Shown here: positions 379 through 22,295 of the stretch, piece after piece
Layout: each line of letters opens with the position of its first letter
Numbering within the stretch: position 1 is the first letter of the stretch
Source: Lachnoclostridium sp.
Lineage (GTDB): Bacteria; Bacillota; Clostridia; Lachnospirales; Lachnospiraceae
Direction: 5' to 3'
DNA length: 64,000 nt
NCBI GenBank assembly: GCA_023665475.1
Contig: JAMPEB010000005.1
Coordinates: 90,522 to 154,521, forward strand
Program-made: the position numbers and the translations under genes
The notes under the pieces: model-generated
The model's input: the letters and a program-made list of their open reading frames with translations, nothing else
What the model was told of the DNA's origin: nothing
The model's database searches: none

Positions 379-2955
379 ATGAATATTCGGAAATTTACGC
401 AAAAGTCCATGCAGGCAGTGGAAGACTGCGAGAGTCTTGCCTATGAGTACGGCAATCAGGAAATTGAGCAGGAACACTTGCTCTATAGCTTGCTGACTCT
501 GGACGAGAGCCTGATTTTAAAACTCATAGAAAAAATGGAAATCCAGAAGGAGCATTTTTTAAACCGCGTCAGACAGGCAGTAGAAAAGCGGGTGAAGGTG
601 CAGGGCGGACAGGTTTATGTAGGTCAAAGCCTGAATCAGGTGTTGACCGGAGCGGAGGATGAAGCAAAGCAGCTTGGGGACGAGTATGTGTCCGTAGAGC
701 ATTTGTTTCTTGCCATGTTAAGGCATCCCAATAAAGAAATTGCCCGAATCTGGGAAGAATACGGCATTACAAGGGAGAGATTCTTGCAGGCGCTGTCTAC
801 GGTGCGGGGCAATCAGCGTGTCACCAGCGACAATCCGGAAGCGACCTATGACACCTTGGAGAAGTATGGGCAGGATTTGGTGGAGAAGGCAGGAAAGCAA
901 AAGCTTGACCCTGTCATCGGCAGGGATAATGAGATACGCAATATTATCCGCATTCTCTCCCGCAAGACCAAAAACAATCCGGTGCTCATCGGAGAACCCG
1001 GTGTGGGCAAGACTGCCGTGGTGGAAGGTCTGGCACAGAGGATTGTCAGGGGGGATGTCCCTCAGGGACTGAAGGATAAAAAGATTTTTGCTCTGGATAT
1101 GGGTGCTCTGGTTGCAGGAGCAAAATACCGCGGCGAGTTTGAGGAGCGTTTGAAGGCTGTTTTGGATGATGTAAAGAACAGCGACGGACAGATTATCCTG
1201 TTTATTGACGAGCTTCACACCATTGTAGGCGCAGGAAAGACAGACGGCGCTCTGGATGCGGGCAATATGTTAAAGCCCATGCTTGCAAGGGGAGAACTGC
1301 ACTGTATCGGCGCTACCACCTTGGATGAATACAGGCAGTATATCGAAAAAGACGCGGCTTTGGAACGGCGTTTCCAGCCGGTTATGGTGGAAGAGCCTAC
1401 GGTGGAGGACACCATTTCCATTCTGAGGGGTCTTAAGGAGCGTTATGAGGTATATCATGGCGTGAAAATCATGGATAACGCGCTGGTCAGCGCAGCCGTG
1501 CTGTCCCACCGTTACATCTCTGACAGATTTCTTCCGGACAAAGCCATTGATTTGGTGGATGAAGCCTGCGCCATGATTAAGACGGAGCTTGACAGCATGC
1601 CCACGGAGCTGGATGAACTGCAGCGCAGATGTATGCAGATGGAAATAGAGGAGGCTGCGCTGAAGAAAGAGGACGACCACTTAAGCAGGGAGCGGCTGGA
1701 AAATATTCAGAAAGAACTGGCGGAGTTAAAAGAGGAATTCGCGTCAAAAAAAGCTCAGTGGGACAATGAAAAGGCGTCTGTTGACAAGCTGTCCAAGCTG
1801 AGGGAAGAAATCGATCAGGTGAATAATGAAATTCAGATTGCCCAGAGAGAAGGGGATCTGGAAAAAATGGCGGAACTGAGTTATGGCAGGCTGCCCGCAT
1901 TAAAAAAGCAGTTGGAACAGGAAGAGGGGCAGTTAAATACCAAGGATTTGTCTCTGGTCCATGAGAAGGTATCCGATGAAGAAATTGCCAAAATTATTTC
2001 CAGATGGACGGGGATTCCCATTACGAAGCTGACGGAGAGTGAACGGAACAAGATTCTGCATTTGGACGAAGAACTGCACAAAAGGGTGGTAGGGCAGGAT
2101 GAGAGTGTCACCAAAGTGACGGAGGCAATCATCCGTTCCAAAGCGGGCATCAAAGATCCCGGCAAGCCCATCGGTTCCTTCCTGTTCTTAGGTCCCACCG
2201 GCGTGGGTAAAACGGAGCTGGCAAAGTCTCTGGCGGCGACGCTTTTTGATGATGAAAATAATATGGTGCGCATCGACATGAGTGAATATATGGAGAAATA
2301 CTCCGTATCCCGGCTGATCGGGGCGCCTCCCGGATATGTGGGATACGAGGAGGGCGGACAGCTTACGGAAGCGGTGCGCAGAAAACCTTACAGCGTGGTG
2401 CTTTTTGACGAAATCGAAAAAGCTCATCCCGATGTGTTCAATGTACTTTTACAGGTATTGGATGACGGACGGATTACGGATTCCCAAGGCAGGACGGTGG
2501 ATTTTAAAAATACCATTTTAATCATGACTTCCAATATCGGAGCAGGATATCTGCTGGAGGGCATCGAAGCGGACGGCACCGTGAAACCGGAGGCGGAAGA
2601 ACTGGTGATGAATGACCTGAGGGCGCATTTCAGACCGGAGTTTCTGAACCGTCTGGATGAGACTATTTTATTTAAACCGCTCACAAAAGAGAATATCAGC
2701 AGTATTGTGCATCTGATGGTGGCGGATGTCAATAAACGCTTGGAGGACAGGAACCTCACCGTGGAACTGTCACCGGAGGCGCTCTCCTTCATTGTGGAAA
2801 ACGCCTATGATCCGGTGTACGGAGCGCGCCCGTTGCGGCGTTATCTTCAGAAGCATGTGGAGACTTTATCCGCTAAGCTGATTCTGGAGGATAAGGTGCT
2901 GCCGGGGGATACCATTTTGATTACGGTGAAGGACGGCGTCCTGCGAACGGAATGA
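379..2955 (+). CDS. clpB: ATP-dependent disaggregase ClpB
   Basis: An 858-residue Hsp100 chaperone that, with DnaK, extracts and refolds aggregated proteins in the cytoplasm. Order: N-terminal double Clp repeat (about 1-145), NBD1 with Walker A GEPGVGKT (205-212) and Walker B IILFIDE, a long helical middle domain (about 410-530) and NBD2 with Walker A GPTGVGKT (605-612), Walker B VVLFDEIE and sensor TSNIGA. The long middle domain and the length (E. coli ClpB is 857) separate it from ClpC and ClpA. The ATG follows a GAGGAGG site at 364. DUF4250 starts about 30 nt after the stop, so the genes are probably cotranscribed. No ClpP-binding IGF/IGL loop was noticed. Confidence 0.96.
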
Positions 2956-2985
2956 AGAATAACATATATTTTGAGGAGGAAGCCT

Positions 2986-3159
2986 ATGATGCCACAGGAT
3001 CCGGTAATGCTCTTGAGCTTTGTAAATTTAAAGCTGAGGGATTACTACAGCAGTTTTGATCTGTTGTGTGAAGACTTGGATGTAGAAAAGGAAGAAATTT
3101 TGCAAAAGCTGGGGGCCATTGGTTATCACTATGATAAAGAGAGAAATCAGTTCGGATAG
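2986..3159 (+). CDS. DUF4250 family small protein
   Basis: A 57-residue protein starting MMPQDPVMLLSFVNLKLRDYY, which is the signature opening of DUF4250, a short uncharacterised family widespread in Clostridia. The C-terminal half (LDVEKEEILQKLGAIGYHYD) looks like a small helix-turn-helix. I chose the ATG at 2986 because AGGAGGA at 2974-2980 sits 5 nt upstream; an upstream TTG at 2971 overlaps the ribosome site and is unlikely. The gene overlaps the 5' end of the following ASKHA gene by 29 nt, which suggests translational coupling. Function unknown. Confidence 0.85.
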   Translation: MMPQDPVMLLSFVNLKLRDYYSSFDLLCEDLDVEKEEILQKLGAIGYHYDKERNQFG

Positions 3160-4372
3160 CGGAAATATCGGGAATCGTTGTGATATATGCATCGGATGCG
3201 GAAGATGCCGGACAAAAAATCCTTTTTCCGTGACTGTAGATAGCGGACTGACAGAGGAGGTTTTTCCGCTTTCCAATCACGACGGCAGACGGTTAGTGAC
3301 GGTGGATATCGGGACTACCACCATTGCCATGCAGCTTTATGGCAGGGACGGAAAAGTGGATGCCGTGCATGCCGTCGTCAATCCCCAGACAGAGTATGGA
3401 GCGGATGTCCTGTCCCGCATTCAGGCGGCGGAGGATGCAGGAACGGCGGCAAAGCTGCAGGACATGGTGCAGGATGTGCTGGAACAGGGATTTTCGGATT
3501 TTAAAGGACGGCTTTCGGAAAACGAAAGCCTGTTTGGCGTGATAGCCGCCAATACGCCCATGGTCTATCTACTTATGGGTTATGATGCGGGAGAACTCGG
3601 GCGGGCGCCCTTTTCGGTAAGTCATCCATCGGGTATCAATGCAGATATCAGGGGAGTTTCCTGCGTGATATTTCCCTGCCTGTCCGCCTTTGTGGGAGGA
3701 GATATCGTGGCGGGCATTTACGCGTCAGGGATGACGGAGGCGGAGAAGCCGGTGCTTTTGATTGATTTGGGCACCAACGGGGAAATCGTGCTGGGAAGTA
3801 AGGACAAAATTCTGGCATGTGCAACAGCGGCGGGTCCCGCTTTTGAGGGCGGCGCAAACAGGGGAATCTGGGGAGCCGATATGGTGAGCCTGATTGCAAG
3901 GATTAAGCGGGAGCATATCGTGGATGAGACGGGGCTGCTTTCGGATGCTTACTTTGAGTCGGGTGTAAATATCGGGGATGTTTCCGTGAGCCAGAAGAGT
4001 ATCAGGCAGATACAGCTTGCCAAGGGAGCCATAGCGGCGGGAATACGGATACTGGCAAAAGAATATGGAATCGGATATTCCGAAATTTCCAAAGTGGTGC
4101 TGGCAGGCGGTTTCGGCTATTATTTGAACCCGCAGGATGCGGCTGAAATCGGACTTTTGCCTGAAGAATTGGTGAAAAAGAGCGTAGCGGGAGGGAATAC
4201 CGCTCTGGCGGGCGCCCTTTTGCTGGGCAGGGAAATTTTAGCAGAGACATGGGGAGAAGCTGTTACAAAAGCAGCCACGGGAGAAGCGTTTTTGAAATGC
4301 AGAACAAAAATAATCAATTTGGCGGAGCATCCCGATTTTCAGGAAAATTATTTGGAAGAAATGAACTTATAA
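3131..4372 (+). CDS. RACo-like ASKHA-domain ATPase (DUF4445 type) without the ferredoxin domain
   Basis: About 413 residues. ASKHA nucleotide-binding motifs are clear: phosphate-1 DIGTTTIAM near residue 60, a second DLGTNGEI, then AAGPAFEGG and the adenosine motif VVLAGGFG. This is the C-terminal part of RACo proteins, which use ATP to reactivate corrinoid proteins of methyltransferase systems. RACo normally starts with a [2Fe-2S] ferredoxin domain; here there is only a short cysteine-rich stretch (CDICIGCGRC) near residue 17. No corrinoid protein or methyltransferase gene is nearby, so the client is unknown. The ATG at 3131 is preferred; a TTG at 3119 is possible. Confidence 0.8.
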   Translation: MIKREISSDSGNIGNRCDICIGCGRCRTKNPFSVTVDSGLTEEVFPLSNHDGRRLVTVDIGTTTIAMQLYGRDGKVDAVHAVVNPQTEYGADVLSRIQAAEDAGTAAKLQDMVQDVLEQGFSDFKGRLSENESLFGVIAANTPMVYLLMGYDAGELGRAPFSVSHPSGINADIRGVSCVIFPCLSAFVGGDIVAGIYASGMTEAEKPVLLIDLGTNGEIVLGSKDKILACATAAGPAFEGGANRGIWGADMVSLIARIKREHIVDETGLLSDAYFESGVNIGDVSVSQKSIRQIQLAKGAIAAGIRILAKEYGIGYSEISKVVLAGGFGYYLNPQDAAEIGLLPEELVKKSVAGGNTALAGALLLGREILAETWGEAVTKAATGEAFLKCRTKIINLAEHPDFQENYLEEMNL

Positions 4373-4417
4373 AGGTTTAGAATATTTTGGCAAAAGAAAA
4401 AATTTTCAGAATCCTAT

Positions 4418-4445
4418 TTCAAAATCCCAAAAGATAAGGTATAAT
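4418..4445 (+). promoter_or_regulatory. Sigma-A promoter for the chemoreceptor gene
   Basis: TTCAAA at 4418-4423 and TATAAT at 4440-4445, 16 nt apart, about 70 nt upstream of the receptor start. The -10 is perfect and the -35 moderate. It is not a sigma-D type promoter. Confidence 0.55.
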
Positions 4446-4513
4446 AAATATATACTATATGCAAGGTGAAGACAGTCAAGCGGCTGTTTGTCATCGGAAA
4501 GGGGGTTCTGAGA

Positions 4514-6583
4514 ATGCAGAAGGATAAGTCCAAAGCTCATGTATTCAGTATACGCAATAAAATTATTCTATGTTTTCTTGTACCCGTTGTATTTATGATT
4601 ATTATTGGTGTTGCCGCATACCGTAAGGCTGCGGAGGGCATGAGCGACAAGTTTCAGTCCTCCACCATGCAGACGCTCAGGATGGCCACGGAGTATGTGG
4701 ATGCAAGCTGTTCCTTTATCAAGGCGGAAGGCATGAAATATGCGATAAGCGGCGATGTAAATAAATATTGCGGCGGAATGATCGGCAATGATGTGACGGA
4801 GAAGGTATCGTTAGCCGGTTCTATCCGCACGAATATTTTGTCTTCCCAGATGTCCAATCCGTTTATAGCCAATATACATATTATCCCCAGAACCGGCACC
4901 AATGTGCTTTCCACAAAAGCTGCGGAGGCAAAGGACGGTATTTTGGATGAATATAAGGAATCGGTGACAGGTGGAACGGGGCAGTTGGAGGCGTGGATAG
5001 ACAATCACGAAGTCTTGGATGAATATCTGGTTTTAAATGTGGCTTCGGATGAATATATTCTGGCATATGAGATGATGTCCCAGACCAATAATGCCTGCAT
5101 TGTTGTGGATGTAAAGGCGTCCGCATTGAGGGATTTTCTGCAGGAGCTTGATCTTGGGGAGGGAAGTATTGTCGGATATGTAACGGGGAACGGCAGAGAG
5201 ATTATCTGTGAGAATCTTCCGGAAGGACAAACCGGTGTACTGAACGAAGGTGAAAGCGTATTTTACGGGCAGGAGTTTTTTCAGTCTCTGAATGCGGAAG
5301 AGGCTTTGCAGGGTTCGGATACCATTAAATATCAGGGGCAGGATTATCTGTTCCTTTACAGCATCAGCGATACGATAGGCGCTTGCGTCTGCGCCCTTGT
5401 TCCCACAAAGGTGGTGACGGGACAGGCACAGGATATCGGAAATCTTACCGTGGGGCTGGTGATTTTAGCCTGTGCGATCGTGCTGGTAATAGGCATGGTG
5501 ACGGTGACGGGCATCCAGAGCAATATGAAGCTGATTTCCAAGAAATTCGGCGAGGTTGCAAAGGGTGACCTTACGGTTCAGGTAATAGCAAAAGGGCATG
5601 ATGAGTTTAAGGATTTGGCGGCTTCCGCATCCAATATGATTGCCAATACCAAGAAGCTGGTACACCGGGTGAGCGACGCTACGGGACAGTTAGAGGCGTC
5701 TTCCAAGGAAGTGGAACAGGCTTCCGGCATTATCAACAGCTATTCCCATGACATTACGCAGGCGATTATGGATATTAACGAGGGAATGTCGGTACAGTCT
5801 CAGAATGCATTGGAATGCGTAACCAAGACGGATATTTTGTCCACGGAGATACAGAATGTCAGCCGTATTGTGGAAAAAGTAGAAAAGTTGGTGAACGAGA
5901 CAGAGGATATGATTAATCAGGGAATGGAAATTGTCCGGGTTTTGGGAGAAAGAGCCGGAGAAACCACGCAGATGACAGTAACGGTGGTAAAGAGCATTGA
6001 TTCCCTGCGCAAGGAGTCCGAGACGATTAATTCCTTTGTGGATATGATCACTGATATTTCCGAGCAGACAAATCTGCTTTCCTTAAACGCTTCCATAGAA
6101 GCGGCAAGAGCCGGAGAGGCCGGAAGAGGATTTGCGGTGGTTGCGGAAGAAATCCGTAAGCTGGCGGATGACTCCGCCAAGGCGGCAGGAGAAATCAGCA
6201 ATAATGTGGGGCATATCACTACACAGACTATGAATAGTGTGGAAAATGCCAACAAAGCAAGTGAAATGGTGGGTATGCAGACCCACGCCGTGGAACAGGC
6301 TGTCAGCTTATTTAGGCAGATGCAGCAAAGAATGAACCAGTTGGTAGAAGGCTTGAAGGAAATTGCCGTGGGAACGGAGAGAGCGGATAATGAACGCAGC
6401 GCAGCCATGGCTGCCGTAGAAAACATTTCCGAGATTATAGAAACGACCGCAGGCAATGCGGAAACGGTTCGGGATGTAGCCGAAAAGCTGTTGGAGAATG
6501 TAGAAAACCTCAACAGGACGGCGGACGCTCTGGGAGAAAATATGGATGGCTTAAAGAACGAGATTTCCGTATTTAAGATTTAA
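4514..6583 (+). CDS. Methyl-accepting chemotaxis protein with large extracellular sensor
   Basis: A 689-residue chemoreceptor. After a basic cytoplasmic start, TM1 (about 15-36) leads into a sensor region of roughly 275 residues, of Cache-like size. TM2 (about 312-334), a HAMP linker and a long signalling coiled coil follow. The conserved hairpin tip is [20 protein letters not shown], ending in [16 protein letters not shown], which binds CheA and CheW. The ATG at 4514 is preferred over an upstream GTG at 4466 because AAAGGGGG lies 8 nt before it. It is unlinked to the che cluster at 24-35 kb but may signal into it. The ligand is unknown. Confidence 0.93.
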
Positions 6584-15059: not shown

Positions 15060-15359
15060 ATGAAAATAGAATCACAAAAAGACGGGGGGAACCTTATCAT
15101 AAAGCTGGAGGGCAGATTGGAGACATCCACGGCGCCGCAGCTTCAGGAAATAGCGGAAAAAGAACTTCAGGATGTCACGGATTTGCAGATTGACATGGAG
15201 CAGTTGGAATATGTGTCATCCGCCGGATTAAGAGTGCTGCTTTTTATTTCCAAAAAGATGAAAGCAAAACAGGGAAACATGAGTATCTGTCATGTGGGGG
15301 AGGATATTATGGAAGTATTTGAAATTACGGGCTTTAATAATATCCTGACCATCCGATGA
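15060..15359 (+). CDS. STAS-domain anti-anti-sigma factor (SpoIIAA/RsbV type)
   Basis: A 99-residue single STAS domain. The phospho-acceptor loop is YVSSAGLRVLL; by alignment with SpoIIAA and RsbV (Ser two places before the Gly) Ser54 is the likely phosphorylation site. Such proteins bind an RsbW-like kinase when unphosphorylated and release its client. The phosphatase plus kinase encoded two genes downstream (16462) is the obvious partner. The next gene begins at 15356, overlapping by 4 nt. Confidence 0.9.
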   Translation: MKIESQKDGGNLIIKLEGRLETSTAPQLQEIAEKELQDVTDLQIDMEQLEYVSSAGLRVLLFISKKMKAKQGNMSICHVGEDIMEVFEITGFNNILTIR

Positions 15360-16453
15360 GCGGTAATGCGGAGGGGAACGGTTTTTCCCTTCATAAAAAG
15401 CGGGATTGGGGAAAGAAAATATCCCTTGAGAATAGGGAAGGCAGAATACTGACCGTGATGCTCAGACAGTATCTTCCGGGAGATGAGGAAGGGATGGTTG
15501 CCTGCATCAGGGATGAGTATGGGGATACTTATTTTAAAAGTGAGCTATATCATCCCGGGTACATACAAAAGGAAGCGGAAAGCGGGCACATTACCTTTCT
15601 GGTGGCGGAAACCAAATCGGGAGAAATCGCGGGAATGCTGATGCTGAAAGAGTTTTATCCGAAGGAAACCATGTGCGAGGTGGCTTCCGAGATTTTTAGG
15701 AAGAAATACCGGGGATATGGTCTGGCAATGCCCTTTTTTGAATATGGCATGAAGATTTTGTTGTCCCGTCCCTATTCTGCGGGTTTTTGTCTCCCGGTAT
15801 TGTTCCATGATGTGACCCAGCGGCTTTTGGGGCGTCTGGAATTTCATGCCTGCGGCTTTGTATTGAATGTGTTTGACATGGAGAAAATCGTACATTCTTA
15901 TCATAACGGCAAAAATACAAAACACTCTCAGGGCGTTCAGATTCGGATGACGGGAAAGCAGAATGCGGGCATTGTTTATGCGCCGCAGGAGCACAGGGCA
16001 TACTGTTACCGCATTTATGACAGGCTGGGAGCGGGCTGCCAACTGGCGACGGGGAGGCGGATGAAGGGGGAAAGCCTGCCCTCTTCCAGCGATATCGGAT
16101 ACTGCAATGATAGTGTACAGAGCAGTCTGGAAATCTATGTTTACGGAATCGGCGCTGATTTGCCGGCAGTCATATGTGGATTACATAAAAAATATCCGCT
16201 GTCGGGCAGGCAGACCGCCAATATCTTTTTAAACTGCAGCGATACCTATGCGCCATGGGCGTATGAAGAGCTGACGAAGCTGGGATACTTTTTTACCGGA
16301 TTAAAGCCACTGTGCAGCGAAAAGGAATACTTGATTCTGCATCATCCGGGGGAAGTGAGGATTTATTTTGAAGATTATGCGGTTGACGAGGAATTTGCGC
16401 CTTTGCTTGCCTATGTGCGCAGATGTTATATGAAATCAGGAAAAGGAGGTTAA
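15356..16453 (+). CDS. GNAT-family acetyltransferase with C-terminal extension
   Basis: 365 residues. After a short basic lead, residues about 34-170 fit a GNAT fold: IAGMLMLKEFY for strand beta-4, then the acetyl-CoA loop FRKKYRGYGLAMPFF (R-x-x-G-x-G/A). The C-terminal about 190 residues are not assigned and may be a second, degenerate GNAT-like domain. It lies between STAS and SpoIIE genes with a 4-nt overlap to STAS; GNAT proteins recur in such partner-switch clusters, but the substrate is not known. Confidence 0.7.
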   Translation: MSGNAEGNGFSLHKKRDWGKKISLENREGRILTVMLRQYLPGDEEGMVACIRDEYGDTYFKSELYHPGYIQKEAESGHITFLVAETKSGEIAGMLMLKEFYPKETMCEVASEIFRKKYRGYGLAMPFFEYGMKILLSRPYSAGFCLPVLFHDVTQRLLGRLEFHACGFVLNVFDMEKIVHSYHNGKNTKHSQGVQIRMTGKQNAGIVYAPQEHRAYCYRIYDRLGAGCQLATGRRMKGESLPSSSDIGYCNDSVQSSLEIYVYGIGADLPAVICGLHKKYPLSGRQTANIFLNCSDTYAPWAYEELTKLGYFFTGLKPLCSEKEYLILHHPGEVRIYFEDYAVDEEFAPLLAYVRRCYMKSGKGG

Positions 16454-16461
16454 GATTGCAT

Positions 16462-19014
16462 ATGAAAAAGAAGAGAAGCATCCGGCGCAAGATTACCACC
16501 GTCTTTCTTATTGTACTTATGGCAGAAATGATTTTGACCGGAGCAGTCAGTATGTGGAGTCTGTATTCCATGAAAAATGTTTCTACGGAGTCGAACAACA
16601 GTCTGGGAAAGACGGCTGCGGAAGATGCGGAGACGGCGCTGGAAGATATGGCGGGCAAGCATTTGCAGGCGCTGGCAGTGGAAAAAGCTACCTATATCGA
16701 ACAGAAATTTGAAGAGGTAGCGGCGTATCTGCATGGAATAGCAGCCGCCGCCGAAGAAATTTATGCACATCCGGAAAATTATCCGGACAGGACGGTTGCC
16801 CTGCCGCAGATGGGAAGCACGACACTTGCCGCGCAGCTTATGTGGTCGGAAAGTCTCGGGGAGCCTGTGCCGGAAAATTGGACGGAGCTCTACAAATTGG
16901 GAAATCTACAGGATATGCTGGTGCAATATAATAACCATAATGACATGGTTTCTTCTACTTATGTGGCGACACAGAGCGGATGGATGATTCAGGCGGATTA
17001 TATTGCGTTCAGTAAATATGAGGGAGGAGCACAACATCCTGATTTTTATGAGGCTGCTTCCAGACAATGGTATCAGCGTGCGCTTCTGGCGGAGCGGGGA
17101 ACGGTTGTATATTCCGATGTGATTGCCGACATTCACTCGGGAAGTAACTGCATTGTCTGCGCCCAGCCTATTTATTATGAGGAAGAAATTGTGGCGGTGG
17201 CAGGCGTGGGTTCTTATCTGGACACCGTGAATGAGGCGGTATTAAACACTACAATCGGAGAAAAGGGTTATGCCTTTTTGGTCAATGAAAAGGGACAGGT
17301 TATGGTTTCGGGAAAGGACGATGGGGAAACGGCAGCAAATGCCGAAACCAATGTCGATTTGCGGGAAAGCGGAAACGCACAGCTTGCAAAGGCTGCAGAA
17401 TCCATGGTATCCGGAAATAGCGGACTTTGTAAGCTGTCCGTGGACGGAAAAGAAGTTTATCTTGCTTATGCCCCGTTAAAGGGATTGCATTGGAGTTTTG
17501 TCACGGTGATAGATGTGGCGGAAGTGATAGCCCCTGCCATGAAAAGCAGGCAGGAAATACTTACACTGACGGAAAGCATGGCGGAAAAACAGGAAGCATC
17601 CATCAGGAATACGCAAATTATCTATCTGGCAATTCTGGTGCTCTCCGTAGGCATCATCAGCTTGGTCAGCGTTTTGTTTACCGGAAGGCTGACCGCGCCC
17701 ATACACAGATTGACGACGGAGGTTGCGGATTTTAACGGAGGAAATTTGGACCATCAGATACAAATTGCCACGGGGGATGAGGTGGAAGAATTGGGAAATG
17801 CGTTTAACGGCATGACGGCTCAACTGAAAAGTTATATCGGAAATCTTGCCGCCGCTACGGCGGAAAAGGAACGGATACAGACGGAGCTGGGGCTGGCGGC
17901 TCAGATACAGGCGGACATGCTGCCCGATTCCGAAAAAATATTGACTGACAGAATTGAGTTTGCCATCCATGCAGGAATGACTCCCGCAAAAGAAGTAGGA
18001 GGAGACTTTTATGATTTCTTTTTGACGGATGAAAACCATCTTGCCTTTTTGATTGCCGATGTATCGGGGAAAGGTGTGCCGGCGTCCCTGTTTATGGTGG
18101 TGGCAAAGACGCTCCTTAGAAGCCATATTACGGATGCGGAGTCTCTGGCGGAAAAAATGGAGGAAGTCAACGCCAGCCTTTGTGCCAATAACCAAAATGA
18201 TATGTTTGTCACGGCATGGGCAGGGATTCTGGATTTATCCACGGGAGTTTTAACTTATGTAAATGCGGGGCATAATCCGCCTTTGCTCAAGCAGAAAAAG
18301 GATAGCTATGATTATCTCAAATCCCACAACGGCTTTGTCCTTGCGGGAATGGAAAACGCCAGATATACCCGGAGCAGAGTACGGCTCAGACCGGGAGACA
18401 CCATCTTTTTGTATACGGACGGCGTAGTGGAAGCAAATAATGAAGAAGGAAAGCTTTACGGCGAAGTGCGGTTGAGGCAGCTTTTAGGCAAAAATGCCGC
18501 TTTGGAGCCGGAACAGCTTGCGGAAGAAGTTTGGAAAAGCGTCAGGGATTTTCAGGGAGCCGCAGAGCAGTTTGATGATATTACAATGTTGATTATCCGC
18601 TATAACGGGGACGGATATGAGACAAAAACCGATGTTCCCAATATGGGACGGATGGAAGAAATCAATCAATGGGTTGAGGAACAGCTCAAAAGAAACGGGA
18701 TTTCCCAAAAAACCATCACCAAAATCAGAATGGCTGTGGATGAAATATATTCTAATATCTGTTATTACAGCAAAGCGGAGGAAGTGACCATAGGATGTAA
18801 AGTAACGGAACAGAGAGAAGCGGTACTGTATTTTGAGGATGACGGTATTCCGTATAATCCTTTGAAGCGTCCCGACCCGGATGTGACACTGCTTATGGAA
18901 GAGCGGGGAGAAGGAGGTCTCGGTATCTATCTGGTGAAAAAGCGCATGGATAAGGTGGAGTACAAATTTGTGGAAGGCAGAAACTGCCTGATACTTATGA
19001 AAAGGGAAGATTGA
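16462..19014 (+). CDS. Membrane sensor with SpoIIE/PP2C phosphatase and RsbW-like kinase domains
   Basis: About 850 residues. TM1 (8-30), a dCache-sized extracellular region (about 31-385), TM2 (about 386-408), HAMP, a SpoIIE phosphatase domain (EVGGDFYDFF, IADVSGKGVPASLFM, LYTDGVVEA, FDDITMLIIRY) and a C-terminal HATPase domain of RsbW type (MAVDEIYSNICYYS, then GGLGIYLVKKRMD). A phosphatase and its opposing kinase are thus fused to one receptor, acting on the STAS protein at 15060. AAAAGGAGGT at 16441-16450 serves either ATG 16462 or TTG 16456. No sigma factor gene is nearby, so the output may be non-transcriptional. Confidence 0.9.
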   Translation: MKKKRSIRRKITTVFLIVLMAEMILTGAVSMWSLYSMKNVSTESNNSLGKTAAEDAETALEDMAGKHLQALAVEKATYIEQKFEEVAAYLHGIAAAAEEIYAHPENYPDRTVALPQMGSTTLAAQLMWSESLGEPVPENWTELYKLGNLQDMLVQYNNHNDMVSSTYVATQSGWMIQADYIAFSKYEGGAQHPDFYEAASRQWYQRALLAERGTVVYSDVIADIHSGSNCIVCAQPIYYEEEIVAVAGVGSYLDTVNEAVLNTTIGEKGYAFLVNEKGQVMVSGKDDGETAANAETNVDLRESGNAQLAKAAESMVSGNSGLCKLSVDGKEVYLAYAPLKGLHWSFVTVIDVAEVIAPAMKSRQEILTLTESMAEKQEASIRNTQIIYLAILVLSVGIISLVSVLFTGRLTAPIHRLTTEVADFNGGNLDHQIQIATGDEVEELGNAFNGMTAQLKSYIGNLAAATAEKERIQTELGLAAQIQADMLPDSEKILTDRIEFAIHAGMTPAKEVGGDFYDFFLTDENHLAFLIADVSGKGVPASLFMVVAKTLLRSHITDAESLAEKMEEVNASLCANNQNDMFVTAWAGILDLSTGVLTYVNAGHNPPLLKQKKDSYDYLKSHNGFVLAGMENARYTRSRVRLRPGDTIFLYTDGVVEANNEEGKLYGEVRLRQLLGKNAALEPEQLAEEVWKSVRDFQGAAEQFDDITMLIIRYNGDGYETKTDVPNMGRMEEINQWVEEQLKRNGISQKTITKIRMAVDEIYSNICYYSKAEEVTIGCKVTEQREAVLYFEDDGIPYNPLKRPDPDVTLLMEERGEGGLGIYLVKKRMDKVEYKFVEGRNCLILMKRED

Positions 19015-19056: not shown

Positions 19057-19368
19057 CTATGCTAATTTTGCCTTTAGGTCTCTTACATCCGATTCCAGCA
19101 TTCCGACTCTGATTGCCAATGTTTCGACTTCAGCGCCGGGTTTTATTGCATGGTGCAGATTTCTGGATAAATCCAGATGCCCTTCGGCTACCCGCTGAAT
19201 ATTCACGCGGATTTCATTTTCCAATATCAATTTAGTTTCTGTGACCGTGCTTTCTACATTGGACATTCTGTCTTCCATATTGGACATTTTCTCGTCCATG
19301 GTTGTTGCGTGCTGCTTTAAGTCTTGCACTTCCGAAAGCAGGAGATCAAGCTTTTCACTGTCTGTCAT
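19057..19368 (-). CDS. Small coiled-coil protein downstream of the invertible promoter
   Basis: 103 residues, nearly all predicted coiled coil: heptads through SEVQDLKQHATTMDEKMSNM and EDRMSNVESTVTETK, and a final ESDVRDLKAKLA. It resembles small phage- or plasmid-type coiled-coil proteins but no function is known. AAAGGAGA precedes the ATG on the minus strand. In the orientation present here the sigma-D promoter at 19523-19549 reads through the left inversion site straight into this gene, about 150 nt away, so it would be expressed with flagellar genes while csrA-hag is not. It may also have its own sigma-A promoter near 19410-19435. Confidence 0.75.
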   Translation of the reverse strand: MTDSEKLDLLLSEVQDLKQHATTMDEKMSNMEDRMSNVESTVTETKLILENEIRVNIQRVAEGHLDLSRNLHHAIKPGAEVETLAIRVGMLESDVRDLKAKLA

Positions 19369-19474
19369 ATTATCGTCTCCTTTCTTTGTAATTTATGTAT
19401 GGTTGAATGGTTGTAAGGATAGTATACCATAGCTTAGGTGCAAAGTCTATTGTGAAAAATGTATAATAAAATAA

Positions 19475-19507
19475 GAATGCAACATAATGATACATTGTGT
19501 TGCATTC
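19475..19507. repeat. Left inversion site (IR-L)
   Basis: A 33-bp near-palindrome with arms GAATGCAACA and TGTTGCATTC. It is matched in inverted orientation at 20315-20347 with 30 of 33 bases identical (one difference at the end, two in the centre). The 10-bp arms flanking a central 13 bp fit a tyrosine-recombinase core site. Confidence 0.85.
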
Positions 19508-19522
19508 TTGCTTACACCATAT

Positions 19523-19549
19523 ATATCGACAGCTCTAAAAAATACTTTA
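19523..19549 (-). promoter_or_regulatory. Sigma-D (sigma-28) flagellar promoter inside the invertible segment
   Basis: On the minus strand TAAA (19549-19546), 15 nt, then GTCGATAT (19530-19523). The consensus is TAAA-N15-GCCGATAT, so only one base differs; the extended -35 reads TAAAGTAT against TAAAGTTT. It lies 16 bp inside the left inversion site and points outward to the left. After inversion it would face csrA and hag. Confidence 0.85.
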
Positions 19550-19580
19550 GGGCAATTTCGGATTTTTTTTTGAAAAATTT

Positions 19581-19608
19581 GAAAAAGCCCTGATTCCGGT
19601 GGGGGCTT
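19581..19608 (-). terminator. Terminator of the recombinase gene
   Basis: On the minus strand AAAGCCC and GGGCTTT pair around a 12-14 nt loop, followed by a T-rich run, 14-40 nt past the recombinase stop. It would separate recombinase transcription from the sigma-D promoter that follows. Confidence 0.65.
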
Positions 19609-19621
19609 TCCGACCGCATAT

Positions 19622-20206
19622 CTATAGTGCAATATTCATAAATACATTATCTTTGTCATCCTGCTCGATTCCCAAATATCGTTTTGTAATCTGATAAGAA
19701 GAATGATTGTAAATATTCATTAATAATGCGGGCGGAATTCCCTGCTGCCATGCATAATAGCCAAAGGTCTTGCGCAGGGAGTGGCAGCTAATATGCTCGT
19801 TTAATCCTATATCCCGGGCGGCTTCTTTTATAATGCGGAAAGCCTGATATCTGCTCAGGGGCTGATTCTGTCCTTTTCTGCTGGGAAACAGATAGGTCTG
19901 AAACGAGGGAACGGAGGAAAGGGACGCCATGTAAAAACCGAAACTCTCCTTGACCGTTCTGTTTAAGGCAATCATATTCCTTTTTCCCGTCTTTTTTTCC
20001 GTTACCATAATATGGGAATGAAAGGTTCCTTTTGAGAAGTCATAAATATCTCCCCATTTCAAATGTAATACATCCGTAATCCGCAGAGCGGTATTTAAAC
20101 ACAAAATGCATAAGGCATAATTCCGCTTATTGGGGTGAAGTTTACCATAATACTCTTTGAATTCCAGAAGTTTTTCGGGGTCTCTGATAGGTTGTGTCGT
20201 ACTCAT
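19622..20206 (-). CDS. Single-domain tyrosine recombinase (DNA invertase)
   Basis: 194 residues, consisting almost entirely of the catalytic domain of the phage-integrase family with no full core-binding domain, as in FimB/FimE-type invertases. Catalytic residues visible: Arg in TALRITDVLHLKW, Lys in the TEKKTGKR hairpin, HSLRKTFGYYAW (His-x-x-Arg), His in IYNHSSYQIT, and the nucleophile Tyr in TKRYLGI. The ATG at 20206 is preferred over an upstream ATG at 20257 because AGAGGAGAT precedes it. The gene lies wholly between the two inverted 33-bp sites, which are its likely substrate. Confidence 0.9.
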   Translation of the reverse strand: MSTTQPIRDPEKLLEFKEYYGKLHPNKRNYALCILCLNTALRITDVLHLKWGDIYDFSKGTFHSHIMVTEKKTGKRNMIALNRTVKESFGFYMASLSSVPSFQTYLFPSRKGQNQPLSRYQAFRIIKEAARDIGLNEHISCHSLRKTFGYYAWQQGIPPALLMNIYNHSSYQITKRYLGIEQDDKDNVFMNIAL

Positions 20207-20255
20207 GCTAATCTCCTCTTTTCTGTTGTTGTGTGCAATTCGTTTTTGAAAAGCC

Positions 20256-20283
20256 ATAATACATCAAAAAAATTTCCTTGTAA
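20256..20283 (-). promoter_or_regulatory. Promoter of the recombinase gene
   Basis: On the minus strand TTACAA (20283-20278), 16 nt, TATTAT (20261-20256), about 50 nt upstream of the recombinase ATG and inside the invertible segment, so it is kept in both orientations. Confidence 0.5.
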
Positions 20284-20314
20284 ATATAATGCGCTTTTCT
20301 TAAGGCCTGACCGC

Positions 20315-20347
20315 AAATGCAACACAATGTATCAAAATGTTGCATTC
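20315..20347. repeat. Right inversion site (IR-R)
   Basis: Inverted copy of IR-L, with arms AAATGCAACA and TGTTGCATTC and central CAATGTATCA shared with the reverse complement of IR-L. It lies 39 bp before the csrA start. Between it and csrA I see only the ribosome site. Confidence 0.85.
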
Positions 20348-20386: not shown

Positions 20387-20752
20387 ATGTTAAGACTGAC
20401 AGTGAGCACGGAAGAGTACCTGATGATTGGGGATGATATCAAGCTGGTGTTTCTGGGAGGCACGGGAAAACACCTGAGGATCATGGTGGACGCCCCCAAA
20501 GAGACAAATATTTTGAGAAGCTCGGTGCTGGAAAAGGACATCAAGGACCCAGAGAGGCGGGCAAATCTGCCCAAGTATTACGCTCAGGTCGAGCATCCGG
20601 AAAAATATGTGAAGAAAACGCAGCAGACCCGGAACAAGGCAGACAAGGCAGAATCGGAAGCAATCATGGAACAGGCTGCCCGGCAGACATCAAGTCAGAC
20701 GGCAAAGCCCCACATCATCATAGCCCGCGGGAACGCAGGAAGCAACAGGTAA
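20387..20752 (+). CDS. csrA: CsrA-like RNA-binding regulator with long C-terminal tail
   Basis: 121 residues. Residues 1-48 match CsrA: MLRLTVSTEEYLMIGDDIKL (usual form MLVLTRKxGESIMIGDDI), then GKHLRIMVDAPKETNILRSSV. CsrA binds GGA motifs in mRNA leaders and represses flagellin translation in Bacillus. Typical CsrA has 60-75 residues; here a basic, Lys/Gln/Ala-rich tail of about 55 residues is added. AAGGAGG precedes the ATG. It stands immediately before hag, the usual place, but fliW (its antagonist) is not in the window. Transcription probably depends on the invertible promoter. Confidence 0.85.
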   Translation: MLRLTVSTEEYLMIGDDIKLVFLGGTGKHLRIMVDAPKETNILRSSVLEKDIKDPERRANLPKYYAQVEHPEKYVKKTQQTRNKADKAESEAIMEQAARQTSSQTAKPHIIIARGNAGSNR

Positions 20753-20814: not shown

Positions 20815-20879
20815 AAAGGAAACCAATAACAATCATTCACCGGCGTAAAAGGATTTGCGTCAGGTAAAACCAAGGAGGT
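20815..20879 (+). promoter_or_regulatory. CsrA-type GGA sites and ribosome site in the flagellin leader
   Basis: Three AnGGA-like motifs occur in the 130-nt csrA-hag gap: AAAGGA at 20815-20820, AAAAGGA at 20847-20853, and AAGGAGGT at 20872-20879, which is also the hag ribosome site. The last would be blocked by CsrA binding, as known for hag of Bacillus subtilis. No sigma-D promoter was found in this gap. Confidence 0.6.
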
Positions 20880-20885
20880 AATTTT

Positions 20886-22295
20886 ATGGTAGTACAACAC
20901 AATTTAACAGCAATGAATTCCAACAGAATGTTGGGTCTGACCACAAAGTCACAGGCTAAGTCCACAGAGAAACTGTCATCCGGTTACAAGATCAACCGTG
21001 CGGCTGACGATGCTGCAGGATTAGCAATCAGCGAAAAGATGAGAAGACAGGTTAGAGGTCTGACTCAGGCTTCCGCAAACGCTCAGGACGGCATTTCCGC
21101 AGTGCAGACCGCAGAAGGCGCATTGACAGAAGTGCACGATATGCTCCAGAGAATGAACGAGCTGGCAACCAAGTCCGCAAACGGAACCAACTCTCAGGAA
21201 GAGCGCGACTACATCCAGAGTGAAGTTGACGCTTTGATCAATGAGATTGACCGTGTATCCGAGACTACCAAGTTCAATGAGATTTATCTGCTGAAGGGCG
21301 ATGGTACAGAAATGCAGAAAGTTACCACAGCAGCAGAAGCGGAAGTTCCCGTTGCGGCAGAGTATGCTACAGGCAAAGGTGGCAGCGGTGCAATTACATT
21401 AGCAGCTAGCTATGCGGCTAACAAAATGGGTGCTGGCAAGGATGAGTCATGGTATGCAAAGGGTGGTACTACAGCACTTACTGAAGCAGAAATCCTTGAC
21501 AGTCTGGAAGTAGGTACAGATGGAAAAGTAAAATTTAAAGATAATGTAGAAATCTACACTGTAGCGGCAAATACAGGAACGAATTATGGCGCCCAGACCG
21601 TGGATAAGAAAGCGACGATAACAGATGCAAACTTTACCATTGCTTCCACAAAGATTTCCACAGCAGCTGATGGAACTGCTTTAGTTGAGGAAAAGGATTT
21701 GGCTGATTTGTTTAATTTGGACGGCACACTGAAAGCGGATGTTTATGCACAGGATGGAACCGATTGGGAAAAAGTTGGTGCAGAGCAGTTATCGAAGTTT
21801 GTTGAGGTAACGCCTGGTAAGGAAGCAGTTGAAGAAGGAGAAAAGGAAGTAGAAGTTTCCAAGGCTTTGGAATTCAACCTCCATGTAGGTGCAGAAGGCG
21901 GTGCAAAAGATGATCCCAAGGCTATCGCTAATAAGATTACCGTTAAGATTGAAGCCATGAGCGCAAAAGGGATCGGCGTTGACGGATTAAAAACTTCCGG
22001 CGTAAAAACAGAAGAGGCTGCTACCGCAAGCATCGAAACCATCAAGTCTGCAATCAAGAAGGTTTCCCAGCAGCGTTCCGACCTCGGTGCAGTCCAGAAC
22101 CGTCTGGAGCACACCATCAACAACCTTGACAATATCGTTGAGAATACACAGTCCGCTGAGTCTGCAATCCGCGATACTGACATGGCTACCGAGATGGTGA
22201 AGTATGCCAACAACAACATCCTTGCTCAGGCAGGTCAGGCAATGCTTGCACAGGCAAATCAGGCAAATCAGGGCGTTCTGTCCTTACTTAGCTAA
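20886..22295 (+). CDS. hag: Flagellin
   Basis: 469 residues, the filament subunit. The N-terminal D0/D1 (MVVQHNLTAMNSNRMLG, then KSTEKLSSGYKINRAADDAAG and ELATKSANGTNSQEERD) and C-terminal D1/D0 (QRSDLGAVQNRLEHTINNLDN to QANQGVLSLLS) are strongly conserved. Residues about 140-370 form a variable surface domain rich in Ala, Lys and Glu. There is no signal peptide, as expected for flagellar type III export. It follows csrA by 133 nt and is ended by a strong terminator. Confidence 0.97.
   Translation: MVVQHNLTAMNSNRMLGLTTKSQAKSTEKLSSGYKINRAADDAAGLAISEKMRRQVRGLTQASANAQDGISAVQTAEGALTEVHDMLQRMNELATKSANGTNSQEERDYIQSEVDALINEIDRVSETTKFNEIYLLKGDGTEMQKVTTAAEAEVPVAAEYATGKGGSGAITLAASYAANKMGAGKDESWYAKGGTTALTEAEILDSLEVGTDGKVKFKDNVEIYTVAANTGTNYGAQTVDKKATITDANFTIASTKISTAADGTALVEEKDLADLFNLDGTLKADVYAQDGTDWEKVGAEQLSKFVEVTPGKEAVEEGEKEVEVSKALEFNLHVGAEGGAKDDPKAIANKITVKIEAMSAKGIGVDGLKTSGVKTEEAATASIETIKSAIKKVSQQRSDLGAVQNRLEHTINNLDNIVENTQSAESAIRDTDMATEMVKYANNNILAQAGQAMLAQANQANQGVLSLLS

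What the first reader, a model, noticed from the sequence alone, without database searches (positions are those of the whole stretch)
19475..20347. Hin-like flagellar switch built from a tyrosine recombinase and an invertible sigma-D promoter
Two 33-bp sites in inverted orientation (30/33 identical, each with 10-bp palindromic arms) flank a recombinase gene and, just inside the left site, a promoter matching sigma-D (TAAA-N15-GTCGATAT). The promoter faces outward. Inversion would turn it toward csrA-hag, which lie 39 bp beyond the right site and show no promoter of their own. This predicts ON/OFF phase variation of flagellin. The Salmonella hin segment has the same logic but a serine recombinase; RecV of C. 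difficile is not encoded inside its flagellar switch. I do not know of a description of this arrangement.
Basis: partly seen in the sequence, partly recalled or inferred. Interest (0 to 1): 0.93.

Follow-up and report, generated by a model that had tools for sequence, protein, structure and literature searches.

The report
Self-flipping promoter switch for flagellin
Between two matched inverted sites next to a flagellin gene, this bacterium carries a DNA segment holding a recombinase gene and a likely flagellar promoter; the segment is predicted to flip, so that the promoter would either run into a probable terminator or turn the flagellin on, and related bacteria carry the same kind of unit in both orientations.

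Summary
19475-20347 is bounded by inverted sites (30/33 matches) and holds a tyrosine recombinase gene with intact catalytic residues and, 15 bp inside the left site, an outward-facing sigma-D-like promoter. A csrA-like gene starts 39 bp beyond the right site, then hag. As assembled, hag is predicted OFF. Of 152 distinct relatives of the recombinase, 124 have csrA/flagellin on one side. Of 96 of these with both sites and a scorable promoter, 93 point away and 3 toward that side (91 and 2 where a flagellin is in reach). The 3 ON copies need at least three changes on the tree; two have an OFF relative with the segment inverted at the sites. The 7-bp core is identical within a genome in 90 of 100 pairs, with 75 distinct cores. 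New: outside the far site stands a hairpin with a T tract (78 of 94; csrA side 8 of 94), so the parked promoter probably fires into a terminator built from the recombination site. Three relatives place the segment between two divergent flagellins. Inversion within one population and transcription were not testable. New variant of a known kind (Hin/Fim-type invertible promoter); not found in the papers searched.

The parts
19475..19507 (.). Far recombination site (away from csrA): TGCAACA-N13-TGTTGCA, core TGATACA; the palindrome extends from 19473 to 19509 (17-nt arms, 94% complementary)
20315..20347 (.). csrA-proximal recombination site, inverted relative to the far site, same core TGATACA
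19523..19549 (-). sigma-D-like promoter TAAAGT-N13-GTCGATAT facing outward through the far site (predicted OFF orientation for hag)
   Evidence: position conserved in 96 cassettes
19462..19509 (-). Predicted intrinsic terminator for the OFF-state transcript: far-site hairpin (19473-19509) followed by U-rich AUUUUAUUAUA
   Evidence: fold of 19462-19512: -17.3 kcal/mol, z -5.2, 0 of 200 shuffles as good; T tract on the far flank in 78 of 94 relatives. The consensus terminator scan did not list it.
19622..20206 (-). Tyrosine recombinase, 194 aa (open frame to 20257); R42, K72, H142-x-x-R145, H168, Y177 invariant in the alignment
20256..20284 (-). sigma-A-like promoter TTTACA-N17-TATTAT of the recombinase gene, inside the segment (predicted)
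   Evidence: 10 of 12, the best in the region
20387..20752 (+). csrA-like gene, first gene of the switched unit
   Evidence: PF02599 2.7e-16; NCBIfam CsrA equivalog cut-offs not reached
20842..20861 (+). Hairpin with AGGA in the loop in the hag leader, resembling a CsrA binding site (resemblance recalled)
20886..22295 (+). Flagellin gene (hag), 469 aa
   Evidence: PF00669 8.7e-42, PF00700 3.3e-27

Best explanation
The 0.87-kb segment 19475-20347 is likely an invertible promoter switch: the recombinase encoded inside it is predicted to flip it between two inverted sites, so that its sigma-D-like promoter would drive csrA-hag in one orientation and, in the assembled orientation, would be stopped at a probable terminator formed by the far site. 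Shown by sequence: sites, promoter motif, recombinase gene, orientation, conserved geometry, covarying cores, both orientations among relatives, and the hairpin plus T tract on the far flank. Inferred: that this recombinase does the flipping, that sigma-D reads the promoter, that the hairpin terminates, and that the outcome is heritable ON/OFF phase variation of a second flagellin, mostly OFF. In three relatives the segment lies between two divergent flagellins and would choose between them.
For: Site pair found only here in the genome. Core 7-mer identical in 90 of 100 site pairs, one mismatch in the other 10, 75 distinct cores; the best of 2000 re-pairings reached 7. sigma-D-like -10 ends a median 18 nt from the site, 5-95% range 9-24, in 96 cassettes. 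93 OFF and 3 ON; the ON ones lie at 3 places in a tree of 146 of the 152, at least 3 changes forced by well-supported branches. L191/L195: half-sites exchanged at core TCTATA, both junctions read. L122/L125: segment inverted relative to csrA. Leader from site to hag has a sigma-D-like site toward hag in 1 of 96. Far-side genes differ: no family in more than 7 of 87. T tract on far flank 78/94 against 8/94 near csrA, also in the 3 ON cassettes; absent from both flanks of the 3 two-flagellin loci. FliA/sigma-D gene present. The genome's next match to the recombinase is 25% identical.
Against: The nearest relative (L077, about 91% identical DNA) has the same orientation. No genome was seen in both states. 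The OFF excess, also in 5 of 5 classified records without MAG in the title, would fit a switch that rarely moves. Of the 3 ON cassettes, L195, which gives the cleanest junctions, has a csrA-like frame but no flagellin in the 3 kb held on that side, so only 2 ON cassettes face a flagellin. The terminator scan did not list the far-site hairpin. sigma-D-like motifs are common genome-wide, and with the loose score 16 of 96 segments matched in one reversed-sequence control, 2 of 96 in the other. Four weak sigma-70-like matches in the segment point toward csrA. The third inverted pair (L211/L218) has many N and a chimeric edge. 16 of 124 flagellin-side cassettes had no scorable promoter.
Confidence: 0.85

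Rival explanations
1. The segment was once invertible but is now locked OFF in this lineage, and hag is silent.
For: Window and its 91% sister L077 share the orientation; 93 of 96 cassettes are OFF. The two sites of window and sister differ at two positions of the outer half-site (AA against TT).
Against: Recombinase frame open with all catalytic residues; the two cores are identical; the mismatches lie in outer half-sites, where relatives also vary. hag and csrA frames are open.
Confidence: 0.1
2. A mobile element (transposon-like) inserted upstream of csrA-hag; the inverted repeats are its ends and the recombinase moves it.
For: Different far-side genes; several copies per genome in some relatives.
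Against: csrA/hag are on one side in 124 of 152, so the unit that occurs at different places mostly includes them; promoter at a fixed distance from the site; related cassettes differ by inversion. No empty-site comparison was made.
Confidence: 0.03
3. The promoter serves the far-side gene (ORF 19057-19368) and the csrA-hag side is incidental.
For: As assembled the promoter faces that gene; in 39 of 87 relatives the first far ORF is on the reading strand.
Against: Far-side genes differ, and in 48 of 87 the first ORF is convergent; a hairpin with T tract stands between promoter and far gene.
Confidence: 0.02

Closest known systems
Salmonella hin-fljBA flagellar phase switch (mostly recalled; review PMC11868660, passages seen)
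   Same: Recombinase gene and outward promoter inside the invertible segment; controls a second flagellin together with a regulator gene; the two-flagellin loci resemble an alternate-antigen switch in outcome.
   Different: Hin is a serine recombinase; in Salmonella one flagellin is moved by promoter inversion and the other repressed (recalled), whereas in the two-flagellin loci here one promoter would serve both.
E. coli fimS with FimB/FimE (passages in PMC2784873)
   Same: Small tyrosine recombinases inverting a promoter; NCBIfam's tyrosine-type DNA invertase models are among the hits.
   Different: Recombinase encoded inside the segment here; fimbriae, not flagellin; scores far below those family cut-offs (44.7 against 221 bits).
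Clostridioides difficile flagellar switch Cdi4 and RecV (PMC5386303, PMC7446863, PMC5903667, passages)
   Same: Tyrosine recombinase and inverted repeats change flagellar expression in a Clostridia gut bacterium.
   Different: That 154-bp switch lies in the 5' leader of the early flgB operon, holds no functional promoter and acts after initiation, with Rho; RecV serves several switches.
C. difficile cwpV switch (PMC2784873, abstract and passages)
   Same: The inverted repeat takes part in a proposed intrinsic terminator in OFF; about 5% of cells express in standard culture, so a mostly OFF population is precedented.
   Different: Promoter lies outside the inverted segment; the terminator is proposed to block the regulated gene itself, whereas here it would catch the promoter parked away from the gene.

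Membership tests
Tyrosine recombinases | Catalytic domain with R-K-HxxR-H-Y residues and fold | tested here: met
   PF00589 6.5e-25; residues invariant in 20 and 23 aligned sequences, the window's included; model pLDDT 87, top PDB match XerA 5hxy TM 0.69
FimB/FimE-type DNA invertases (NCBIfam PRK09870, PRK09871) | Score above the curated cut-off | tested here: not met
   44.7 and 42.6 bits against 221 and 222
Hin-type invertases | Serine recombinase | tested here: not met
   Pfam and NCBIfam hits are tyrosine recombinase or integrase families only
Hin-type switches, by architecture | Recombinase and outward promoter both inside the inverted segment, flagellin outside | tested here: met
   (sequence only)
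Invertible promoters (invertons) | Promoter flanked by inverted repeats | tested here: met
   (promoter by motif only)
Invertible promoters (invertons) | Both orientations in one population | not testable with these tools
   No reads; one genome per species; only between-species flips
C. difficile Cdi4/RecV switch | Promoterless segment in an early flagellar operon leader, recombinase not in the segment | tested here: not met
   Promoter-like site and recombinase are inside; the neighbour is csrA-hag
Intrinsic terminators (far site) | Hairpin followed by a U tract | tested here: inconclusive
   Strong fold and U-rich tail in the window and TTTT within 14 nt in 78 of 94 relatives; but the consensus scan did not list it and termination is untested
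sigma-D (FliA) promoters | TAAA-N15-GCCGATAT (consensus recalled) | tested here: met
   One mismatch (T for C in GTCGATAT); use by sigma-D untested
CsrA | NCBIfam equivalog score | tested here: not met
   39.6 bits against 73 and 33.5 against 70.1, though the Pfam CsrA cut-off is passed: a divergent CsrA-like protein

The most novel reading that the evidence does not exclude
Lachnospiraceae carry a recurrent, self-contained flagellin reserve: a portable cassette of recombinase, sigma-D promoter, private csrA and flagellin whose promoter is parked against a terminator made from its own recombination site and is flipped onto the flagellin in rare cells; variants between two flagellins alternate antigens, and the module has been reused for other secreted proteins.
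Probability: 0.55. Interest if true: 0.88.

Novelty: new variant of a known kind. Interest (0 to 1): 0.78.

Why it matters
Lachnospiraceae flagellins are prominent gut antigens; CBir1, recognised by about half of Crohn's patients according to PMC13353774 (passage seen), is one (whether CBir1 itself is switched was not tested). If many of these flagellins sit behind a mostly OFF inversion switch, gene presence in metagenomes will not predict flagellin exposure, and read orientation would be a readout of expression state. The site-as-terminator layout is also a compact design in which one promoter is either used or quenched.

Tried and rejected
Far-side gene as the target: rejected, genes differ (no family in more than 7 of 87). 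Close sister as a flipped form: L077 is not flipped. L211/L218 as a clean inversion: downgraded because L211 has many N and its recombinase start runs into flagellin sequence. Half-site asymmetry as the cause of OFF bias: the csrA-side outer half-site is degenerate in 33 of 98 (Fisher 4e-7 against the far outer half-site), but it would stay put on inversion, so by itself it gives no direction; it may instead weaken the leader hairpin (inference). Contig ends within 1400 nt of the recombinase (27 of 124) were counted but not tested against chance and are not used. A viral-contig scan gave 10 relatives at 32-54% identity, not followed. Papers: ten searches; none of the listed titles and abstract starts, nor the passages I opened, describes this arrangement. 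Flagellin + phase variation + tyrosine recombinase + Lachnospiraceae gave 0 papers and invertons + flagellin + Lachnospiraceae gave 0. The library holds no preprints and lacks most subscription journals. PMC3720852, on flagellin genes of Roseburia and Eubacterium, has no occurrence of recombinase, integrase or phase variation in its main text (passages seen).

Rows dropped: 181 recombinase hits became 152 after removal of identical copies; 101 had an accepted site pair, 100 entered the core count; of 99 with csrA/flagellin on one side, 96 had a promoter, 98 entered the half-site count, 94 the flank counts; 87 had at least 600 nt of far flank; 146 of 152 entered the tree (too short, a stop, or N).

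Full report
WHAT IS THERE. The segment 19475-20347 is bounded by two inverted sites of the form TGCAACA-N13-TGTTGCA with the same asymmetric core TGATACA. The pattern occurs twice in the window and in none of 100 shuffles, and a search of the 3.1-Mb genome found no further copy at E<=0.001. Inside lie a 194-aa tyrosine recombinase (19622-20206, minus) with a sigma-A-like promoter of its own (20284-20256) and, at the other end, a sigma-D-like promoter (19549-19523) that faces out through the left site. A csrA-like gene begins 39 bp beyond the right site and hag follows. As assembled, the promoter points away from hag.

THE RECOMBINASE. Pfam Phage_integrase, 6.5e-25. R42, K72, H142, R145, H168 and Y177 are invariant in 23 aligned sequences, the window's included. 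The model has pLDDT 87 and matches XerA best (TM 0.69, 19% identity). It falls well below the cut-offs of the Fim-type invertase models. The genome has no second close copy; the next match is 25% identical.

RELATIVES. Matches at E<=1e-30 occur in 35 of 397 genomes drawn from the family, the window's included, and at E<=1e-50 in 44 of 138 genomes of the genus, likewise. After removal of identical copies there were 152 distinct cassettes. A csrA or flagellin gene lies on one side in 124, on both sides in 3, on neither in 25. Of the 124, 104 are OFF, 4 ON and 16 could not be scored. Requiring both sites leaves 99, of which 96 have a promoter: 93 OFF, 3 ON. Where a flagellin match is in reach the figures are 91 and 2; the third ON cassette, L195, has a csrA-like frame but no flagellin in the 3 kb held on that side. 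In 10 OFF cassettes and in L195 the promoter is at the other end of the recombinase gene; the 9 of those 10 that entered the tree fall with L195 in one clade of 11 rows.

WHY INVERSION. (a) The central 7 bp are identical between the two sites in 90 of 100 cassettes and differ by one base in 10, while 75 different cores occur; the best of 2000 re-pairings gave 7 identical pairs. This is what a recombinase that needs identical overlap regions would maintain. (b) In 96 cassettes the -10 box ends a median 18 nt from the site. (c) The ON cassettes L091, L122 and L195 lie at three places in a tree of 146 cassettes, and well-supported branches force at least three changes. (d) L195 (ON) and L191 (OFF) are close relatives (84% over the recombinase gene). 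In L195 the csrA-side outer half-site is joined through the core TCTATA to the promoter-side half-site, and the far outer half-site to the other one: the products expected of a crossover in the core. L122 (ON) and L125 (OFF) show the segment on the same strand and csrA on opposite strands. L211/L218 suggest the same for a two-flagellin locus, but L211 is a poor assembly.

A TERMINATOR FROM THE SITE. Reading outward past the site, the 12 nt on the far side hold 7.6 T on average against 2.0 on the csrA side (far higher in 92 of 94, lower in 1), the palindrome is longer and the hairpin stronger (-16.4 against -10.2 kcal/mol). TTTT occurs within 14 nt in 78 of 94 far flanks, 8 of 94 near flanks, and 23 of 94 in each of two windows further out on the far side. 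The three ON cassettes keep the T tract on the far flank although their promoter now faces the csrA side. The three two-flagellin loci (L139, L179, L218) have no such tract on either flank (sequences, read by eye). In the window the OFF transcript would fold at -17.3 kcal/mol with none of 200 shuffles as good, followed by AUUUUAUUAUA. A consensus scan with its own stem rules did not list it, so termination is a prediction. The csrA-side outer half-site is imperfect in 33 of 98 against 4-5 of 98 for the other half-sites; this would weaken the hairpin in the ON leader (inference).

WHAT IT CONTROLS. The far-side genes differ among relatives (no family in more than 7 of 87), and the first far ORF is convergent in 48 of 87. 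Between the site and hag a sigma-D-like site toward hag was found in 1 of 96 cassettes; within the segment 91 of 96 have one pointing away and 2 one pointing toward hag, against 16 and 2 of 96 in two reversed-sequence controls. So csrA-hag is the likely target and its promoter the one in the segment, though four weak sigma-70-like matches in the window's segment also point that way. The genome also has FliA/sigma-D and another flagellin, cut by the edge of contig C25, with its own sigma-D-like promoter and no relative of the recombinase on that contig. hag would thus be a second, switched flagellin. Its leader carries a hairpin with AGGA in the loop, as do 28 of 121 leaders by a strict rule, the window's included, against 0.2 in shuffled leaders; a CsrA site is a recalled resemblance, not a test.

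LIMITS. No within-population data were available. The nearest sister has the same orientation. The OFF excess may reflect biased recombination, selection, or rare movement; of 10 records without MAG in the title, 5 are OFF, 1 is a two-flagellin locus and 4 could not be classified. Cassettes share ancestry, so counts are not independent.

COMPARISON. In what it would do it is Hin-like; by family it is not Hin (tyrosine recombinase). It differs from the C. difficile flagellar switch, which holds no functional promoter and lies in the flgB leader (PMC7446863, passages), and from cwpV, whose promoter is outside the segment and whose terminator is proposed to block the gene itself (PMC2784873, abstract and passages). 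None of the listings and passages from my ten paper searches describes this arrangement.

Noticed in passing
L189 and L190 (G441:C2:240000-276500): At least eleven flagellin genes in one array on one strand, with three separate recombinase-csrA-flagellin switches, each with its own core sequence.
   Followed up: partly
L127 (CAJTFX010000022.1), 1799-6531: The same recombinase type, sites and sigma-D-like promoter lie beside a secreted-looking repeat protein instead of flagellin, with a T-rich tail on the other flank: the module seems reused for another surface protein.
   Followed up: partly
L139, L179, L218: Segment between two divergent flagellin genes, no csrA match at these loci; inversion would choose one of two flagellins.
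   Followed up: partly
L195 (G484:C13:5574-12194): ON-oriented cassette whose csrA side has no flagellin; the next ORF there (1087-2571, minus, 494 aa) looks like a LicD-type protein (recalled look, not searched).
   Followed up: no
window 20842-20861 and hag leaders of relatives: Hairpin with AGGA in the loop just upstream of hag, in 28 of 121 leaders by a strict rule (0.2 in shuffles); possible CsrA site.
   Followed up: partly
csrA-proximal outer half-site in 98 cassettes: Degenerate in 33 of 98 while the other three half-sites are intact in 93-94 of 98.
   Followed up: partly
25 of 152 cassettes (for example L021-L025, L123, L141, L144): Relatives of the recombinase with no flagellar gene in reach; some lie at contig ends, the targets of the others were not worked out.
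   Followed up: no
window 15060-19014: STAS-domain protein and a SpoIIE-phosphatase/kinase-like protein with Cache and HAMP domains, a partner-switching pair by look, stand beyond the far side.
   Followed up: no
L085 (JAMPHU010000096.1): Record named Candidatus Gastranaerophilales carries a cassette that groups with Lachnospiraceae ones on a 7-kb contig; probably a binning error.
   Followed up: no
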